From the NCBI GenBank assembly GCA_014804365.1, contig JAAUZX010000024.1, positions 19,470-83,469 on the forward strand: 64,000 nucleotides of DNA, written 5' to 3'. Of this stretch, positions 2,506-11,203 are shown piece by piece. The DNA comes from Lachnospiraceae bacterium (GTDB taxonomy: Bacteria > Bacillota > Clostridia > Lachnospirales > Lachnospiraceae). The translations under genes were made by a program, and so were the position numbers. How positions within the stretch are numbered: position 1 is the stretch's first letter; each line of letters opens with the position of its first letter. Below the pieces are notes generated by a model that searched no databases, had not been told where the DNA came from, and saw only the letters and a list, made by a program, of their open reading frames with translations.

Positions 2506-3762
2506 ATGGAGTACAATGCGAAGAGAAAAAGCGCGGTAGATAAGAAATTGGATAAAGGAACGGGAGTACGGCTCTGCGCTGTGGCCGGAAAATGCGGCGG
2601 GTGTCAGTATATCGACGTGCCCTATAAAGAGCAGCTCAAAAAGAAGCAGAAGCAGGTGGAACTTCTTCTGAATAAATATGGCAAGGTTGGCGAGATCATC
2701 GGTATGGAACGGCCGGAGCACTATCGTAATAAGGTGCATGCCGTTTTTGATTTTCAGAAAGGCAAAGGGATCGTGTCGGGGATCTACCGAGAGGGCACTC
2801 ATGATGTGATACCTGTGGATAGCTGTCTTCTGGAAGACCGCAAAGCGGATGAGATCATCGTGTCCGTCAGGGAGTTGGCGAAATCTTTTAAAATCAAGAC
2901 ATATGATGAGGACACGGGCTATGGGCTGCTGCGGCATGTGCTGGTTCGCGTGGGACATACTACCGGACAGATTATGGTGGTTTTGGTACTGGGTTCGCCC
3001 ATATTACCATCTAAAAAGAATTTTATAAATGCGTTATGTAAACTACATTCCGAAATCACAACCATAGTTCTGAATGTGAACAATAAAAGGACGAGCATGG
3101 TTTTGGGTGACAAAGAACAGGTGCTTTACGGTAAGGGATATATCGAGGATGAACTGTGCGGCAGAACTTTTCGCATTTCTTCCCAGTCATTCTATCAGGT
3201 CAATGCGGTGCAGACGCAGAAATTGTATGACAAGGCGATAGAGTATGCCGCATTGACGGGATGTGAGACTGTGATCGACGCATACTGCGGTATCGGTACG
3301 ATTGGACTAGCCGCAGCTAAGCAGGCTAAGAAGGTGATCGGCGTAGAGATGAATCAGGCGGCGGTGAGGGACGCTGTGACTAATGCAAAGATCAACGGTA
3401 TCAGGAATGTTAATTTCTATCAAAACGATGCGGGGAAATTCATGGTACAGCTTGCGGAGGCGGGAGAAAAAGTGGATGTTGTATTCATGGACCCGCCCAG
3501 AAGCGGGAGTACGGAGGAATTCATGGATGCTATTTGTAAACTCCGTCCGGAGCGGATCGTATATATTTCCTGCAACCCGGAAACTTTGGCGAGAGATCTG
3601 GAATATCTGACCGGTAAGGGTACTGCAGGAAATGCGGGTGGAAGAAAAGGTGAGAGAAGCGGGAAAGGGTATCAGGTGGCGGAGATTACGCCGGTGGATA
3701 TGTTTCCGTATACGGGGCATGTTGAGACTGTCTGCCTGCTATCGCGCAAATCCCCGGTTTAA
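2506..3762 (+). CDS. rlmD: 23S rRNA (uracil-5-)-methyltransferase, TrmA/RlmD family
   Basis: Transfers a methyl group from S-adenosylmethionine to C5 of a uracil in 23S rRNA (U1939-type, possibly also U747 as in RlmCD of Firmicutes). The N-terminal Cys cluster LCAVAGKCGGC fits the [4Fe-4S] site of the family. The C-terminal half carries the SAM motif (DAYCGIGTIGL, about residue 260), the FMDPPRSGS motif and the catalytic ISCNPETLARDL near residue 350. At 418 aa it is short because the usual TRAM domain is missing, which is common in Clostridia. The extension between the catalytic Cys and the end (GNAGGRKGERSGKG) is a low-complexity insert. It is the last core-type gene before the accessory island. 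Confidence 0.9.
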   Translation: MEYNAKRKSAVDKKLDKGTGVRLCAVAGKCGGCQYIDVPYKEQLKKKQKQVELLLNKYGKVGEIIGMERPEHYRNKVHAVFDFQKGKGIVSGIYREGTHDVIPVDSCLLEDRKADEIIVSVRELAKSFKIKTYDEDTGYGLLRHVLVRVGHTTGQIMVVLVLGSPILPSKKNFINALCKLHSEITTIVLNVNNKRTSMVLGDKEQVLYGKGYIEDELCGRTFRISSQSFYQVNAVQTQKLYDKAIEYAALTGCETVIDAYCGIGTIGLAAAKQAKKVIGVEMNQAAVRDAVTNAKINGIRNVNFYQNDAGKFMVQLAEAGEKVDVVFMDPPRSGSTEEFMDAICKLRPERIVYISCNPETLARDLEYLTGKGTAGNAGGRKGERSGKGYQVAEITPVDMFPYTGHVETVCLLSRKSPV

Positions 3763-3828: not shown

Positions 3829-4860
3829 ATGAGATTTATAGGTTGTAAAACCTTATTGTTGGAAGATATAAAGCAGGTGATTGACGAGAAAGCACCGGAT
3901 GCAGAAAGTCTATGTGATATCTTCTCCGGAACAGCTACAGTAGCTCGATATTTTAAACAGTGGTATAGAGTGTATTCTAATGACTTGCTCTATTTTTCTT
4001 ACGTTCTTCAGATGGGAACAATTGAAAATGATAGTGTTCCATCATTTGAGAAGTTGAAGGCTGAATTAAAGATTGATGATCCGATAGACTATTTTAATGG
4101 TCTTGAAGCAGGAGATATGGAATCCTTGCCAAAGGAAAACAGATTCTTTCAGAATACATATGCCCCTATGGGTGGGAGAATGTATATGACGGATGAAAAT
4201 GCACTGAGAATAGATTTTGCCAGAAACACAGTAGAAGATTGGAAGAAAAATGAGTTGATAACTGACAACGAATATTATTATCTGGTTGCCTGCATTGTTG
4301 AGGGCATTCCATTTGTTTCAAATATTTCAGGAACATACGGTGCTTTTCATAAAACGTGGGAGAGACGTTCTTACAAAAAATATGAATTGTTCAGATTGGA
4401 TGTTACCTCAAATGGTAAAGAAAATAGATGCTTCAATGGAGATGGAGTTGAGGTAATAAAGGAACTTAGCGGAGATATTCTTTACATCGATCCGCCATAT
4501 AACGGAAGACAGTATTTACCTAATTATCATGTTTTGGAGACAGCGGCAAAATACGACTTTCCGGAGGTGCGTGGATTAACCGCGCAAAGACCTTATGAGG
4601 ATGCAAAGTCAGATTTTTGCCTTAAGACGAAGGTTGTAGCTGCCTTTGATAGATTAATCCAAAATGCTCAATTCAAACATATTATATTGAGCTATAGTAC
4701 GGATGGTCTAATGACAGTTGAAGATATTGAGAAAGTAATGAAGAAGTATGGTAAACCAGAAACTTTCAAGATATATTGGATTCCTTATAGAAGGTATAAG
4801 AGTAGAGCTCAAGGTGAAAAAGAAGAATTAAAAGAGATGTTAGTATACATTGAGAAATAG
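3829..4860 (+). CDS. DNA adenine methyltransferase, D12 class (M1)
   Basis: A DNA N6-adenine methyltransferase of the Dam/D12 (alpha) group. Motif I is DIFSGTATVARYF (about residues 29-41) and motif IV is YIDPPYNGRQY (about 221-231); the stretch PNYHVLET after it is typical of methyltransferases of FokI-type restriction systems. AAAAGGAGCG precedes the ATG. It is first in a three-gene operon, 5 bases before the next methyltransferase and facing two nuclease genes, so its likely task is to protect one strand of the recognition site. The recognition sequence cannot be read from the protein. Base composition is AT-richer than the upstream rRNA methyltransferase gene, as expected of transferred DNA. 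Confidence 0.88.
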   Translation: MRFIGCKTLLLEDIKQVIDEKAPDAESLCDIFSGTATVARYFKQWYRVYSNDLLYFSYVLQMGTIENDSVPSFEKLKAELKIDDPIDYFNGLEAGDMESLPKENRFFQNTYAPMGGRMYMTDENALRIDFARNTVEDWKKNELITDNEYYYLVACIVEGIPFVSNISGTYGAFHKTWERRSYKKYELFRLDVTSNGKENRCFNGDGVEVIKELSGDILYIDPPYNGRQYLPNYHVLETAAKYDFPEVRGLTAQRPYEDAKSDFCLKTKVVAAFDRLIQNAQFKHIILSYSTDGLMTVEDIEKVMKKYGKPETFKIYWIPYRRYKSRAQGEKEELKEMLVYIEK

Positions 4861-4865
4861 GTGAG

Positions 4866-5762
4866 ATGATGAAGTATATAAAAAGCCCATTAAACTATAC
4901 GGGTGGAAAATACAAAATACTTTCTCCGATATTTGAAATATTTCCTGAGAAAATTGGCACTTTTGTTGACTTGTTTGCAGGAGGGTTTAATGTCGGAATA
5001 AATGTGAATGCGGATAAAATAATCTGTAATGATCAGATTACTTATCTGATTGAATTATATGAGTATCTGGCTGAGACAAGTACTGACGCTATAATTTCCG
5101 CAATTAAAGAGAGAATTGATGAATTTAAACTAACACAGCAGAATGTTGATGGTTATAATGCACTTAGAGATAGGTATAATGAGTCCAAAAACATAGTAGA
5201 TTTTTTTGTTCTAACATTTTATGCGTTTAATCATCAGATAAGATTTAATAATAGCCAAATGTTTAATACGCCTTTTGGAAAAGAAAGAAGCAGCTATAAT
5301 TCCTCAATTGAGAAAAATCTCATAAGATTTTGTGAAGCGCTGAAAAGCAAAAAAATAGAGTTTTATAATAAAGATTTTTTGGGACTGGATTTATCAGAGC
5401 TTGGCGCAGGGGACCTTGTATATTGTGATCCGCCGTATCTTATTTCTACGGGCTCTTATAATGATGGAAAACGTGGTTTTAAAGATTGGACACCTATCGA
5501 AGAGCAGCAGTTGTTAGATTTATTAGATAGATTAAGTACCCAGGGTGTCAGATTTGCTCTTTCCAATGTTTTGTACCATAAGGGAATGAGTAATGATTTA
5601 TTGATCGAGTGGAGTAAGAAATATAAAGTTTACTATATTGATAAAACATATTCGAATTGCAGTTATCAATTTAAAGATAGAGGTACAAAAACGGTAGAGG
5701 TTGTAATAACTAATTTTGAGAGTGAGGGATATGTGCAATGGCAGCAAGAAAGTCTGTTTTAA
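4866..5762 (+). CDS. DNA adenine methyltransferase, Dam/D12 class (M2)
   Basis: A second D12-class adenine methyltransferase. The N-terminus has the family hallmark SPLNYTGGKYKIL (motif X) and motif I VDLFAGGFNVGINV; motif IV is VYCDPPYLIS near residue 187. Length (298 aa) is normal for Dam-like enzymes. It follows M1 after 5 bases and overlaps the third methyltransferase by 25 bases, so the three are probably translated together. In type IIS systems with asymmetric sites, two adenine methyltransferases often modify the two strands separately; M1 and M2 fit that pattern. That is inference. Confidence 0.9.
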   Translation: MMKYIKSPLNYTGGKYKILSPIFEIFPEKIGTFVDLFAGGFNVGINVNADKIICNDQITYLIELYEYLAETSTDAIISAIKERIDEFKLTQQNVDGYNALRDRYNESKNIVDFFVLTFYAFNHQIRFNNSQMFNTPFGKERSSYNSSIEKNLIRFCEALKSKKIEFYNKDFLGLDLSELGAGDLVYCDPPYLISTGSYNDGKRGFKDWTPIEEQQLLDLLDRLSTQGVRFALSNVLYHKGMSNDLLIEWSKKYKVYYIDKTYSNCSYQFKDRGTKTVEVVITNFESEGYVQWQQESLF

Positions 5763-6874
5763 ACACAGAGGTTATTGAAAGGAAACTCTCTGAAGCCGGA
5801 ATAAGTGATATTGAGGCAATAATCAAGGAGATTGAGGCACAAGTTAATAAAACAGTTAAACAAAAGATAAAAGAAGCTCAACCATATGTAAATGAGGCTT
5901 ATGATAATGGTGAAAGCTTTCTGGATATCTATCCTGATTATGATTTAAAAAAGCTGCCTAATTGGGTTATTGAGAAGATCGATACCGCCAGGGTGATTGG
6001 TAATTCAAAGCAGACGGTAATTTTACCGGACGGAAGGAAATATCAGCTCGATAATACGTTAAATCATATGGCTGGCGGTGAGTGGACATATTTTATTAAT
6101 TCGGTTATTAATACTGCGTATAAGACTTCCGGAGAAGATTCGTTTGCACACAAAATAAGAAAAATTCACCCAACACCAAAACCGCCTCAATTAATGCGAG
6201 ATATTATTCAGTTTTTTACAAAGGAAAATGAACTGGTCTTTGATTATTTTATGGGGGTAGGCGGAACTCTGCTGGGCGCCGGTGTGTGTGGGCGAAGAGC
6301 TGTGGGGGTTGATTTAAATCCTGTTTATATAGATGCATATAAGCGTGCAGCTAACGAAATAGGAGTTCAGGAGTTTGAGTGTGTTGAAGGAGATTGTCTT
6401 GAGATACTGGCGGACAATGAGAGAATGAGAAATGTACTCGGGAACGATGAAATCAGCTTAGTGCTAATCGATCCGCCGTACGGAAACATGATGAGCCGCG
6501 AAAAAACGGGAGCAGATATTAAGGTGTATGGCAATGTGGCAACGCCATTTACAGATAGCGATAAAGATTTTGGAAATCTGGAATTAGATTGCTTCTTTGA
6601 TAGGTTAAAGGAATCTGTTGAAAGAGTAATGCCATATATGAAGAAGCGTGGCCACGTTGTAATCTTTATTAAAGACTTACAGCCTGATGGCAAAAATACA
6701 AACTTACTTCATGCGGAAATTGTTGATAAGTTAAATGAGATACAAAATTTAAATTATAAGGGAATGAAAATATGGGCGGACCAAACTGCAAAGTTATTTC
6801 CTTATGGTTATCCGTTTTCATTTGTTGCAAATCAAATACATCAATATATTTTGGTATTTAGAAAAGAGAAGTAG
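5738..6874 (+). CDS. DNA methyltransferase, N4/N6 (DNA methylase) family with motif order I-IV
   Basis: A third methyltransferase, of the N6_N4_Mtase type. After a helical N-terminal region of about 130 residues come HPTPKPPQLM and motif I FDYFMGVGGT (near 165-175), then motif IV LIDPPYGNM (near 245). In the commonest (beta) enzymes DPPY precedes the F-GGT motif, so this is the reverse order. It could methylate adenine N6 or cytosine N4. It ends 24 bases before the stop of the convergent nuclease gene. It may be a third modification enzyme of the same system or a methyltransferase with a separate target. Confidence 0.85.
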   Translation: MAARKSVLNTEVIERKLSEAGISDIEAIIKEIEAQVNKTVKQKIKEAQPYVNEAYDNGESFLDIYPDYDLKKLPNWVIEKIDTARVIGNSKQTVILPDGRKYQLDNTLNHMAGGEWTYFINSVINTAYKTSGEDSFAHKIRKIHPTPKPPQLMRDIIQFFTKENELVFDYFMGVGGTLLGAGVCGRRAVGVDLNPVYIDAYKRAANEIGVQEFECVEGDCLEILADNERMRNVLGNDEISLVLIDPPYGNMMSREKTGADIKVYGNVATPFTDSDKDFGNLELDCFFDRLKESVERVMPYMKKRGHVVIFIKDLQPDGKNTNLLHAEIVDKLNEIQNLNYKGMKIWADQTAKLFPYGYPFSFVANQIHQYILVFRKEK

Positions 6875-6897
6875 CACACTGCCACTTCTCTTCTTTG

Positions 6898-8262
6898 TTA
6901 TATAATACCTTCATTATGAAATATATTAATCCAAGGTGTCGGAGCTGTAGGATTAATATAAATATGTCCATGTATATCAATATAGATAAGAACTCTATTG
7001 TGTGGAAGACCTGGATGACGGCCACCAAAAATAGAAACAGCACGATATAAATTGCACCCTGCATACCCTATACAGTTATTGATAAGGTATTCGTTTTCTA
7101 TATGCGCATATGAATCAACTTCTATAATACCTTGATTAAGCGTTTGATACTTCTTACCCTCAATAACTGTAACAAGATTGTTTACCGGATCGTAGAAAAC
7201 AACATCGGGCATGAGCGTTGCTTTTGGAACCGGAATAGCCTGGTTTTGTCTGGAAATGAAATAACACTTTTCACAGCCGGCATGATTGTGGAAAATAGGT
7301 AATAATCCATTATTTTCTGCAATTATATGCAAGAAAATAGAAGTAACTTTTTCTGAGCGGGCTTCATAGTGCCAATATGATGTAGGTAGTGCCAAATTTG
7401 GAATAATAATACCGTCTAGCTGCACGCCTAATAATCTGCATATGTATAGTAATTTATTGCCACGAGCCCTGTTGACCATCGTTTGTGTAATTCCATGCTG
7501 CGTTACAATTATTGGGTTAGTATAGCCCAGCGAACGTAATCCGGAGGCGATTACTGCGACGGTACCGATGCCGGGATCATGAGTCATGCCGCCGTTCTTT
7601 ACAAGTCTAATTGACATTGTAATGTAACCAGGATTAGAATTATCAATTCGTGTAGCGACACCATATCTTGGGGGAGCCATATTATTTTTGAAATTAATCA
7701 GTTCATTTAAATCGGCGAATGGGTGGTAGTTAAACATATATGGTTCTTTGCCAATTATTTTAATACCGAGATTTAAATATATATTTGTTCCGAATATATT
7801 AGTGTCAGTAGGATCACTATGATCTGGGTTATAGTCATTGCAATAAAGCATGTACTGACGTGTTTGCGGATAAAAATAGCGAGCATATACAAATTTTATT
7901 CCGCGTTGAAAAATACCAGAATTTCTGGATTCTTTGTCAGAAGTTTTGGTCTCTTCGATTACCATTAGCGGAATGTCAGTTCCATTCTCAACAGGTTTTT
8001 GGTCCTGATAAAATAATAGATAATCACAAAAACTAGAGCCGCCGGAAGCGCAGCAGAGAATTATGTGTGCGACATTACGGATGCTGACTCCGAAGAGTTC
8101 GTACTCAAATGAAAATGTACCATCCGGATTATATAATGGTCTGATTTGTGGTAGGGTGACATCAATTATTGTCTGGCCAAAATCAACCGAAAATTGTGAG
8201 AGAATTGACATGACAGTGCTTATCTTAGGACATTCTTCAGTTAATAACCATATGTTGGGCAT
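6898..8262 (-). CDS. putative restriction endonuclease, large subunit, with two PD-(D/E)XK-like motifs
   Basis: Start chosen at the ATG 8 bases after GGAGG rather than the in-frame TTG five codons earlier; this gives 454 aa. The C-terminal third has a textbook nuclease motif: MPDVVFY (P352-D353) followed by VIEGKK (E368, K370). A second candidate lies N-terminal: CDYLLF (D80) and VIEETK (E104, K106). I recognise no named family. The gene follows a small nuclease gene by 25 bases and converges on three methyltransferase genes, so restriction endonuclease is the natural call. Two-subunit type IIS enzymes such as BsrDI and BtsI offer a precedent for a large plus a small cutting subunit. Homology to them is not shown here. 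Confidence 0.7.
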   Translation of the reverse strand: MPNIWLLTEECPKISTVMSILSQFSVDFGQTIIDVTLPQIRPLYNPDGTFSFEYELFGVSIRNVAHIILCCASGGSSFCDYLLFYQDQKPVENGTDIPLMVIEETKTSDKESRNSGIFQRGIKFVYARYFYPQTRQYMLYCNDYNPDHSDPTDTNIFGTNIYLNLGIKIIGKEPYMFNYHPFADLNELINFKNNMAPPRYGVATRIDNSNPGYITMSIRLVKNGGMTHDPGIGTVAVIASGLRSLGYTNPIIVTQHGITQTMVNRARGNKLLYICRLLGVQLDGIIIPNLALPTSYWHYEARSEKVTSIFLHIIAENNGLLPIFHNHAGCEKCYFISRQNQAIPVPKATLMPDVVFYDPVNNLVTVIEGKKYQTLNQGIIEVDSYAHIENEYLINNCIGYAGCNLYRAVSIFGGRHPGLPHNRVLIYIDIHGHIYINPTAPTPWINIFHNEGII

Positions 8263-8287
8263 GCTGTTTACCTCCAATCATATTAGT

Positions 8288-8833
8288 TTATATGCAGTTC
8301 ACTAGTAATGAATTGTATAGTTCTTCAATAGGGCGAAGATCAGTATCATACATTACATAGTTGTTTAGATAACCATTATTCTCGATTCTGTTGGCTTTAC
8401 GCATATCTTGATATGAGTACCAGCCTAAGAGCTTGACCGCATTCCGTTCCGCGAACAATCGTGCTGAGATGAAGATGTCTTTGGGGTGAGATCGGGCCTG
8501 CTCAACCATCTCAAGTGTTCGAGTATGAAATGATTTTGTCCGGGTTTTAATGTCAAATAAGTATTGTTTGTTTGCAGTTGATAATAGAAAATCATACTCA
8601 TCACGTTCTTGAGGTGATGAATGATCTTCGACAAATGGAATTTTATTCTCAATAAGGAACATTTTGAATCCTTTTTCGCCCAGTTTTCCCTCTAACATTT
8701 TTTGCTGCTTATTATTTAATCCTCCTGCATGAAAATCGTGTCTGTTTGATGTATAAGCACGAGAGGATTGTGCATAAGTAAGCGCTTCTTGATATAGATC
8801 AGGGGTGATAATGTATTCTTCTCTTAAAATCAT
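8288..8833 (-). CDS. putative restriction endonuclease, small subunit, PD-(D/E)XK type
   Basis: A 181-aa soluble protein. EGKLGEKGF (E49/E53), DEYDFLL (D81) and YLFDIKTRT (D94, K96) together form the E-D-DxK pattern of the PD-(D/E)XK nuclease fold. TAGGAGAG lies 8-9 bases before the ATG. It is the first gene of a two-gene operon with the large putative endonuclease. The sequence up to residue 45 is mostly helical and may contact DNA or the partner. It could instead be an independent nicking or Vsr-like enzyme, but the position inside the restriction locus favours a subunit role. Confidence 0.65.
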   Translation of the reverse strand: MILREEYIITPDLYQEALTYAQSSRAYTSNRHDFHAGGLNNKQQKMLEGKLGEKGFKMFLIENKIPFVEDHSSPQERDEYDFLLSTANKQYLFDIKTRTKSFHTRTLEMVEQARSHPKDIFISARLFAERNAVKLLGWYSYQDMRKANRIENNGYLNNYVMYDTDLRPIEELYNSLLVNCI

Positions 8834-9166
8834 ATCTTTACTCTCCTAAATTGTTTTTCTTTTGAGCTAAGTTAAGTCCCAAGATAAGCCACAAAACAGT
8901 CGCGATGTCCGGGAGTATAATCATCTTCTTCCTCAATAAATCCCATTCCGCATGGGCGTTTAAATAGGTTTTTTCTTAGGTTTCGATTTGGGGAAGAACG
9001 GATATAAGTTTCAAATCCATATATAACCTACAAAAATAAATACATTATGTACATTATAGCAAAAAACGAACGACTTTCATATACCTTCTTGGTAAAAATG
9101 TTGATATATGTTATTATAGCATGTGTGAAAAAAATCACAAAATATTTTTCTTGGGAGGTCAACTAT
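8834..9166. other. divergent intergenic region between nuclease operon and DUF262 gene
   Basis: An AT-rich 333-bp gap that must hold promoters for both directions. The 120 bases from 9047 that the ORF track adds to the DUF262 gene lie here and contain its promoter, so they are not coding. No controller (C) protein gene or clear C-box repeat is visible. Confidence 0.55.
9089..9117 (+). promoter_or_regulatory. sigma-A promoter of the DUF262 gene
   Basis: TTGGTA and TATTAT are separated by 17 bases; the ribosome binding site GGGAGG and ATG follow 35-50 bases downstream. Confidence 0.55.
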
Positions 9167-11203
9167 ATGGAAGCGAGTCCAATGAGCCTATTTGAAAAGT
9201 TCATAAAAGAGGCATATGGTTCCCAGTATGTAATTCCTGTATATCAGCGTAATTACACATGGAGAAAGAATAAGCAGGTTAAGCAACTTCTTGCAGATAT
9301 TGAGAGAATCCTAAAGGGTGAAACAAAGAAGCATTTTATTGGTACAGTTGTTTATAATATTGTAAAAACAGATTTTATGGTAAGAGAGCGAGAAGTTGTA
9401 GATGGCCAACAGAGATTGATTACTATGTTTTTAATAGCCTATGCGTTACGTAATTTGGCAAAGGCACAAGGAGAAAATGATATTGCTTCGGCAATTACAA
9501 GCAGCTATTTGGAGAACAATTCATCAGATATAAAATATAAATATCGTTTACAGCCTTCTGTTTCTGATGATGATGCATATTCATATATAGCAAAGGATAT
9601 TATTGGTGATTACGAGGGAACCTCTCTTGTAATGGAAAATTACAATTATCTGTATTCAAGTTTGGAGATCCTGTCAAAAGAATATCCTCTTATGAAAGTC
9701 ATTAATGCAATAAGGGAAATATACATAGTAAGAATAGAATTGGATTCAGATGATGACGCTCAGCAGATTTTTGAAAGTATTAATTCAACAGGAGAGAAAT
9801 TAACTGCTGCTGATCTTATTCGCAATTATGTCATGATGCGAAGAACAAACGATGAGCAGGAGACAATCTATGAAAACTACTGGTTGAAACTTGAGAGGAT
9901 TTTTCCTGAGTCTAAAAAACTTGCTGAGTTTATAAGATTTTATTTGGCCAGCAAAACTTATACACTGACAACGGAAAAAGATTTATATCCTGTTTTTAAA
10001 GATTATTGGAAAGCACATGATGGTGAAAATAAGTATTTAGATATTTTAGAAGAGGTGCTGCATTATGCGCAGCATTTTGAAAGACTATATTTGAGTGAAA
10101 AAAAGGATCCACTTGGTGAACAGCTTAACGATTTTAGAAAATTACAGAGCTTTATGCCTGCTCCATTTTCTATTAGAATGCTTGAGCATCTAAGGCTAAA
10201 TGAGATTACTCAGGAACAGGCCAAACGGACATTGAAGGCGCTAAATACGTATCTGATAAGGCGTTATATAAATGGTCAGGATACAAGTGCTATTTCGCGT
10301 TTCTTCCCAGGATATTTGAAGAATGTTGAAGCGCAGATAGAAATAAATGATAATTTTGATAAATATGTAGATATTTGTATTTATTATCTTGTAAATGAAA
10401 ACAAAGCTAATTCGAAGTTTATGCCGGATGATACGCAGCTTAGAAGTTATCTTGAAACAGCAAATGCGTATACTCTGTCAAATATTAGATGGGTACTGGA
10501 TAAAATAGAAAGTCATAATAACCCGGCACCGGTTGATTTATCAGCATTAAATATTGAGCATATTATGCCACAAACACAAAATGAATATTGGGCCGACATT
10601 TCGGGACTCGATGAGGATGAGTATACGAAAGTAGTGAATAGACTTGGTAATCTAACATTGGCAGCTTCTTCTGATAATAGCAAAATGGGGAATAAAGATT
10701 TCTCATCTAAAAAGAAGATACTTGAGACTACAAAGCACTTAAATCTTAATGCACCTATACTATCAAAGGACAGTTGGACTGTAGCAGATATTGAAGCGAG
10801 ATGTAAGACTTTAGTTAATAAAATCATTGAGATATTCCCTTACGAGAAAAGTTCTTATGAGGTAGTTGGAAAGGATTCTAAAAGATATATCACACTAGAA
10901 GCAAAAGGCATAGTGGCTATGGGATATTTGAATGAAGATGAATCCCTCACAGTTTATGCTGACAGCCAAGTTTTTTATGATACTGCTCCTAGTGCAGAGT
11001 CATTGAAGGAAATGAGAGATGACTTCCTTGAACAAGAAATAATAATACAAAAAGATGGTGGATATGTATTTGCACAGAGCCATACATTTGGTTCACCAAG
11101 TACAGCTGCTGATTTTATTATTGGTGGTTCTAACAACGGTTGGAATTATTGGAAGGACAGTGCGGGAGTCGTTATAAATGATTCGCTGAGGAAGAAGTCC
11201 TAA
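9167..11203 (+). CDS. DUF262/DUF1524 (GmrSD-like) nuclease with C-terminal DUF4357
   Basis: Start chosen at ATG 9167 behind TTGGGAGG (678 aa); the longer frame starts inside the promoter. Domains in order: DUF262 (ParB-like fold) with IPVYQRNYTW at 23-32 and DGQQRL at 79-84; a helical middle; a DUF1524 HNH-type nuclease near 460-500 (IEHIMPQ, NRLGNLTL); and a C-terminal DUF4357 domain (about 580-678). The family includes GmrSD, a type IV enzyme that cuts modified phage DNA using NTP hydrolysis. With both halves in one chain it may act against DNA with modified bases, next to a restriction system acting on unmodified DNA. The target is unknown. Confidence 0.88.
   Translation: MEASPMSLFEKFIKEAYGSQYVIPVYQRNYTWRKNKQVKQLLADIERILKGETKKHFIGTVVYNIVKTDFMVREREVVDGQQRLITMFLIAYALRNLAKAQGENDIASAITSSYLENNSSDIKYKYRLQPSVSDDDAYSYIAKDIIGDYEGTSLVMENYNYLYSSLEILSKEYPLMKVINAIREIYIVRIELDSDDDAQQIFESINSTGEKLTAADLIRNYVMMRRTNDEQETIYENYWLKLERIFPESKKLAEFIRFYLASKTYTLTTEKDLYPVFKDYWKAHDGENKYLDILEEVLHYAQHFERLYLSEKKDPLGEQLNDFRKLQSFMPAPFSIRMLEHLRLNEITQEQAKRTLKALNTYLIRRYINGQDTSAISRFFPGYLKNVEAQIEINDNFDKYVDICIYYLVNENKANSKFMPDDTQLRSYLETANAYTLSNIRWVLDKIESHNNPAPVDLSALNIEHIMPQTQNEYWADISGLDEDEYTKVVNRLGNLTLAASSDNSKMGNKDFSSKKKILETTKHLNLNAPILSKDSWTVADIEARCKTLVNKIIEIFPYEKSSYEVVGKDSKRYITLEAKGIVAMGYLNEDESLTVYADSQVFYDTAPSAESLKEMRDDFLEQEIIIQKDGGYVFAQSHTFGSPSTAADFIIGGSNNGWNYWKDSAGVVINDSLRKKS

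What the first reader, a model, noticed from the sequence alone, without database searches (positions are those of the whole stretch)
6898..8262. Two separate nuclease motifs in one putative endonuclease
The 454-aa protein carries PD...EGK (352-370) and a second D...ETK set (80-106). If both are active, one chain could cut both strands; if only one, it would need the small partner.
Basis: partly seen in the sequence, partly recalled or inferred. Interest (0 to 1): 0.55.

Follow-up and report, generated by a model that had tools for sequence, protein, structure and literature searches.

The report
Restriction enzyme with two cutting sites
The gene most likely encodes an ordinary kind of bacterial DNA-cutting defence enzyme that carries two different cutting centres on one chain, one for each DNA strand, so that it does not need the small neighbouring nuclease to break DNA.

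Summary
The 454-aa protein lies on the MINUS strand (8262..6898), start ATG 8262 behind GGAGGT. As text patterns they are near chance level. In homologues they are not: across 95 full-length relatives from many phyla, D80, K106, P352, D353, E368 and K370 are invariant and E104 is 94/95. They are the only conserved [DE]xK triads in the chain. An AlphaFold2 model (pLDDT 91.9, pTM 0.92) puts each motif on the central strand pair of its own helix-strands-helix-strand unit, one N-terminal and one C-terminal, as in a PD-(D/E)XK core. The gene sits with two D12 adenine methyltransferases and a third, N6/N4-type one. The small 181-aa neighbour is a separate PD-(D/E)XK-like protein. It is absent from 57 of 65 R loci with over 2 kb on both sides, swaps place and partner, and occurs in phages without this enzyme. 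Best reading: a single-chain Type II (IIS/IIT-like) restriction enzyme that uses one site per strand, as reported for BtsCI and Mva1269I. Not shown: activity, strand assignment, recognition sequence, role of the small protein. New member of a known kind.

The parts
6898..8262 (-). R: 454-aa restriction endonuclease (P0001), ATG at 8262, stop 6898-6900; RBS-like GGAGGT at 8275-8270
   Evidence: PADLOC REase_II PDLC03445 E=2.4e-57; 148 relatives in genome contigs
7738..8262 (-). N-terminal nuclease unit (residues about 1-175): helix 14-27, strands 67-74, 81-86, 100-105, helix 116-130, strand 135-140
   Evidence: AlphaFold2 model
7945..8025 (-). Motif 1: D80 ... E104-T-K106, followed by invariant Q119 and near-invariant R120
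7396..7737 (-). Middle region (residues 176-289), presumed target-recognition part (inference)
   Evidence: position between the two nuclease units; conserved R219, D229, P230, H256
6901..7395 (-). C-terminal nuclease unit (residues 290-454): helix 305-317, strands 321-325, 354-358, 363-371, helix 372-383, strand 404-412
   Evidence: AlphaFold2 model; faint BsuBI/PstI_RE similarity
7153..7209 (-). Motif 2: P352-D353 ... E368-G-K370
   Evidence: invariant in 95 of 95 homologues
8288..8833 (-). S: 181-aa small PD-(D/E)XK-like nuclease (P0002), upstream of R in the same direction; D81, D94, K96 at 8593-8546
3829..4860 (+). M1: D12-class N6-adenine DNA methyltransferase (343 aa)
   Evidence: Pfam PF02086 E=2.3e-39; PADLOC MTase_II PDLC03287 N-half E=1.9e-129
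4866..5762 (+). M2: D12-class N6-adenine DNA methyltransferase (298 aa)
   Evidence: Pfam PF02086 E=3.3e-39; PADLOC PDLC03287 C-half E=3.5e-110
5738..6874 (+). M3: N6_N4-type DNA methyltransferase (378 aa), convergent with R
   Evidence: Pfam PF01555 E=5e-24; PADLOC PDLC03391 E=2.5e-135; accompanies M1 in place of M2 in some homologous loci

Best explanation
The protein is the restriction endonuclease of a horizontally acquired Type II restriction-modification system. It is a single chain with two different PD-(D/E)XK active sites. The N-terminal site (D80, E104, K106) hydrolyses one strand and the C-terminal site (D353, E368, K370) the other, at or close to an asymmetric target that two or three methyltransferases protect, one strand each. 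The middle part probably reads the target. The small neighbour S is an optional extra nuclease, not a required subunit. Shown by computation: gene, family, conservation of both sites, fold context of both sites, methyltransferase linkage, dispensability of S in the family. Inferred: activity of each site, one strand per site, asymmetric target, Mg2+ catalysis.
For: PADLOC Type II REase model matches P0001 at 2.4e-57 and matches all 74 aligned homologues. Both motif sets are invariant or nearly so in 95 homologues; the residues of motif 2 were not part of any search pattern, so selection bias cannot explain them. AF2 model pLDDT 91.9, pTM 0.92: D80 starts strand 81-86, E104/K106 close strand 100-105, then helix 116-130 and strand 135-140; D353 starts strand 354-358, E368/K370 lie on strand 363-371, then helix 372-383 and strand 404-412. 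M1 homologues flank 64 of 65 R loci with over 2 kb on both sides; 62 of 65 have M1 together with M2 and/or M3. S is absent from 57 of those 65. R is under strong purifying selection: against L092, pN 0.14 with pS saturated at 0.79. Published precedent: monomeric BtsCI and Mva1269I carry two independent cutting domains (PMC6097692; PMC4081073).
Against: No full-length structural match in the PDB (Foldseek best E 6.6e-3 to unrelated folds; nucleases such as MUS81-EME2, SdaI and N.BspD6I appear only at E>=0.1), so the PD-(D/E)XK assignment of each half rests on the order of secondary-structure elements and on residue positions, not on a superposition. Profile searches of each half against the PDB gave nothing significant. 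A conserved site could bind metal without cutting. The window and its closest relatives do keep S next to R.
Confidence: 0.8

Rival explanations
1. BtsI/BsrDI-like two-subunit enzyme: the large chain cuts one strand only, and the small 181-aa protein supplies or completes the site for the other strand.
For: S lies directly next to R in the window and in 14 other loci; S has a conserved PD-(D/E)XK-like motif and fold; in BtsI the large subunit alone is a bottom-strand nickase and the small one is needed for the top strand (PMC2909958).
Against: 57 of 65 R loci with over 2 kb on both sides have no S, yet R keeps both sites there. R loci with S do not show loss of either site. S and R do not share a history: window versus L092, R 78% but S 56%; window versus L006, R 47% but S 85%. 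Order and orientation vary: S-R in window, L092 and L098; R-S in L006, L012, L016, L093 and L096; opposite strands in L097 and L099. S occurs in phage contigs without R.
Confidence: 0.1
2. One of the two motifs is structural or vestigial; R is a nickase, or a dimer that uses one kind of site only.
For: Conservation shows constraint, not catalysis; no biochemical data. One homologue (L054) has E104V while keeping E103.
Against: Complete Asp...Glu-x-Lys sets are invariant at both sites across about 35% identity, and both sit in canonical core positions.
Confidence: 0.08
3. Not a restriction enzyme of this methyltransferase cluster but an unrelated nuclease that happens to be adjacent.
For: No Pfam or NCBIfam family covers it.
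Against: R is linked to M1 in 64 of 65 loci from many phyla, and a Type II REase model matches it.
Confidence: 0.02

Closest known systems
BtsCI (GGATG 2/0; isoschizomer BseGI), single-chain Type IIS/IIT endonuclease
   Same: Monomer with two independent catalytic sites, one reported as PD-Xn-EXK and one as SD-X6-E-X14-QR (PMC6097692). Here the C-terminal site is PD-x14-E-x-K. At the N-terminal site E104-x14-Q119-R120 fits the second formula and D96-x6-E103 resembles it.
   Different: S-D at positions 95-96 occurs in only 11 of 95 members and D96 in 75 of 95, while D80 is invariant; the spacing is off by one.
Mva1269I / BsmI
   Same: Single chain, two different catalytic domains (EcoRI- and FokI-like; PMC4081073, and the title of the reference cited there).
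   Different: Sequence relation not tested.
BtsI / BsrDI / BspD6I (large plus small subunit)
   Same: A large chain with a nuclease site, with a small nuclease gene next to it here; two methyltransferases.
   Different: Here the large chain has two conserved sites and most homologues lack a small partner. BtsIB has its PD-EXK at P57, D58, E72, different positions and spacing.
BsuBI/PstI restriction endonuclease domain (PF06616), SdaI
   Same: Faint similarity around motif 2: E=0.29 for the whole protein, best 0.013 in 4 of 24 C-terminal segments; SdaI appears in the Foldseek list at E=0.27.
   Different: Below the curated cut-off; only about 27 residues; no N-terminal counterpart.

Membership tests
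Type II restriction-modification system | Endonuclease gene linked to cognate DNA methyltransferase genes | tested here: met
   M1 in 64 of 65 loci, M1 with M2 and/or M3 in 62
Type II restriction-modification system | Sequence-specific cleavage blocked by cognate methylation | not testable with these tools
   needs enzyme assays
Type IIT in the broad sense (two different catalytic sites, PMC4081073) | Two different catalytic sites in the enzyme | tested here: met
   two invariant D...ExK sets in two separate folded units; halves not detectably homologous by profile; catalysis itself not assayed
Type IIT in the broad sense (two different catalytic sites, PMC4081073) | Asymmetric recognition sequence with cleavage in or just beside it | not testable with these tools
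   only indirect: separate methyltransferases for the two strands are usual for such enzymes
BtsI/BsrDI two-subunit enzymes | Small subunit required for second-strand cleavage, hence always encoded | tested here: not met
   S absent in 57 of 65 loci
BtsCI family | SD-X6-E-X14-QR at the second site | tested here: inconclusive
   E104-x14-QR fits, but SD in only 11 of 95 and spacing off by one
BtsCI family | Sequence homology and GGATG specificity | not tested
   BtsCI sequence not identifiable in the searched collections; papers not held
PD-(D/E)XK nuclease fold, each half | Core helix-strands-helix-strand with D and (D/E)xK on neighbouring strands | tested here: met
   DSSP order and residue positions in the AF2 model
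PD-(D/E)XK nuclease fold, each half | Structural superposition on a known member | tested here: inconclusive
   whole-chain Foldseek hits to nucleases only at E>=0.1; halves could not be searched apart

The most novel reading that the evidence does not exclude
The locus is a three-site system: a self-sufficient two-site restriction enzyme plus a free-standing phage-type small nuclease (S) that has been captured repeatedly by this restriction-modification family and acts as a separate auxiliary restriction or nicking enzyme, perhaps governed by the same methylation (S lies beside a fused M1-M2 methyltransferase without R in L129).
Probability: 0.15. Interest if true: 0.45.

Novelty: new member of a known kind. 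Interest (0 to 1): 0.28.

Why it matters
It gives an uncharacterised, widespread family (148 relatives among one-genome-per-species contigs, from Clostridia to Bacteroidota, Campylobacterota, Spirochaetes, Patescibacteria and archaea) a clear testable architecture: two sites on one chain, each of which should give a strand-specific nickase when the other is mutated. The variable presence of S is a natural experiment on how one-chain and two-chain asymmetric cutters relate.

Tried and rejected
Sequence searches against the PDB, with single proteins, full profiles and each half: nothing significant. NCBIfam: nothing. Internal duplication of the two nuclease halves: no support. Relation of either half to S: none by profile. 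Idea that M3 plus S form a separate, interleaved restriction-modification system: rejected, because M3 replaces M2 in R loci that have no S (L049, L065, L071, L074) and S occurs with R in loci without M3 (L020, L097, L098). Idea that the window's R is decaying because it is only 47% identical to the Javan105 R while its neighbours are 76-87% identical: rejected, since it is 78% identical to L092 with pN 0.14 and saturated pS. First genome-contig scan with the single sequence found nothing; the alignment query found 148. Papers on BsrDI/BtsI and BtsCI nicking enzymes are not held.

Full report
What is there. The finding's coordinates hold a 454-aa open reading frame on the minus strand (8262 to 6898). 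The plus strand there is closed by stops. An ATG at 8262 follows GGAGGT at 8275-8270. The two motifs are at the stated residues: D80...E104-T-K106 and P352-D353...E368-G-K370.

Is it more than chance? The text pattern alone is not: 14 of 25 ORFs of 300 aa or more in this window have two or more non-overlapping D-x(8-30)-[DE]xK strings. The family answers the question. P0001 matches the PADLOC Type II restriction enzyme model PDLC03445 at 2.4e-57, and so do all 74 aligned relatives. Relatives were found in plasmids (Psychrobacter, Bartonella), Streptococcus prophages, 148 places in genome contigs (80 kept) and 8 viral contigs. In an alignment of 95 full-length members, D80, E103, T105, K106, Q119, P352, D353, E368, G369 and K370 are invariant and E104 and R120 are 94/95. 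The two motifs are the only conserved [DE]xK triads in the chain. One search pattern contained EETKT, which could favour motif 1, but no pattern touched motif 2.

Fold. The AlphaFold2 model from 74 sequences is confident (pLDDT 91.9, pTM 0.92). The N-terminal unit reads helix 14-27, strands 67-74, 81-86, 100-105, helix 116-130, strand 135-140; D80 opens one core strand and E104/K106 close the next. The C-terminal unit reads helix 305-317, strands 321-325, 354-358, 363-371, helix 372-383, strand 404-412; D353 opens one strand and E368/K370 lie on the next. This is the canonical placement in PD-(D/E)XK nucleases (established knowledge of the fold). The two halves are not detectably homologous to each other. 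Whole-chain Foldseek against the PDB gave no significant match; MUS81-EME2, SdaI and N.BspD6I appear at E>=0.1. The fold assignment of the halves therefore rests on topology and residue placement.

Neighbourhood. M1 and M2 are D12 adenine methyltransferases and match the two halves of a fused 646-residue Type II methyltransferase model. M3 is an N6_N4-type methyltransferase. Among 65 R loci with more than 2 kb on both sides, M1+M2 occur in 37, M1+M2+M3 in 20, M1+M3 in 5, M1 alone in 2 and M2 alone in 1. M2 and M3 therefore look like alternatives, which suggests (inference) that they methylate the same strand and M1 the other.

The small partner. S (181 aa) has invariant D81, D94 and T97-R98-T99 in the 12-member alignment; in a wider set of 38 rows K96 is present in 36, with one T and one gap. 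Its model is well predicted and nuclease-like (pLDDT 87.6). Its best structural relatives are small phage proteins, mostly unnamed, one called restriction endonuclease, with weaker resemblance to D212, I-Ssp6803I, Holliday junction resolvases and HincII. S is missing from 57 of the 65 well-flanked R loci. Gene order and orientation relative to R vary. R and S have different histories: window versus L092, R 78% and S 56%; window versus Javan105 (L006), R 47% and S 85%. In IMG/VR, most S loci have no R or M1/M2 within the fetched flanks; the three read in detail (L108, L112, L126) sit among phage early genes. S is thus an optional companion, and R must be able to work without it in most hosts.

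Mechanism. The best-supported mechanism is a single-chain enzyme with two different active sites, one per strand, on an asymmetric target. This is a known kind: BtsCI and Mva1269I are monomers with two cutting domains (PMC6097692), and the broad Type IIT class of the 2014 review includes one-chain and two-chain versions (PMC4081073). In BtsI, by contrast, the large chain alone only nicks the bottom strand and needs the small chain for the top strand (PMC2909958). The reported BtsCI motifs, PD-Xn-EXK and SD-X6-E-X14-QR, resemble the two sites here: PD-x14-EGK, and E104-x14-QR preceded in 75 of 95 by D96-x6-E103. The match is one residue off and the Ser is rare. Membership in a BtsCI family is therefore a lead, not a result, and the GGATG specificity that would follow is a guess.

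State of the gene. R is under strong purifying selection (pN 0.14, pS 0.79 against L092). The island has 32-38% G+C against 48% for the neighbouring rlmD-like gene. In three relatives of the genus the homology to the window ends at about 3734-3747, just before M1 (one of these contigs ends soon after), and none of the other 144 related genomes searched has R, so the island is probably a recent acquisition.

Verdict. Observation confirmed; the two-active-site reading is supported; the small-partner reading is disfavoured. It is a new member of a known kind.

Noticed in passing
window 9047-11203 (+): GmrSD-family protein with a C-terminal DUF4357 domain next to S. Close homologues (about 63% identity) sit upstream of R in L029, L093, L094 and L096 (broken in L021), and a distant one lies between R and M in L010 and L022, so the association with this restriction-modification family recurs.
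   Followed up: partly
L107-L126 (viral contigs): Homologues of the small nuclease S lie in phage contigs without the restriction enzyme; L108, L112 and L126 show early genes (ERF-like recombination, RusA-like, methyltransferase) around it. In L129 S lies beside a fused M1-M2 methyltransferase with no R in the fetched contig.
   Followed up: partly
L007:5433-8307, L097:730-3501: Two tandem, intact but diverged copies of R in one system (Psychrobacter plasmid pPspP11G5c and a viral contig); a partial extra copy lies in L050.
   Followed up: no
window 3829-11203: Low-G+C defence island inserted after an rlmD-like gene; homology to congeneric genomes stops just before M1.
   Followed up: partly
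window 6898-8262 versus L006 and L092: Mosaic operon: R is closest to L092 (78%) while S and M3 are closest to Javan105 (85%, 81%), which implies replacement of the R gene between related systems while the methyltransferases stay.
   Followed up: yes
L068:7950-9374: R broken into two reading frames beside M1 and M3 genes: a likely pseudogene of the endonuclease.
   Followed up: no
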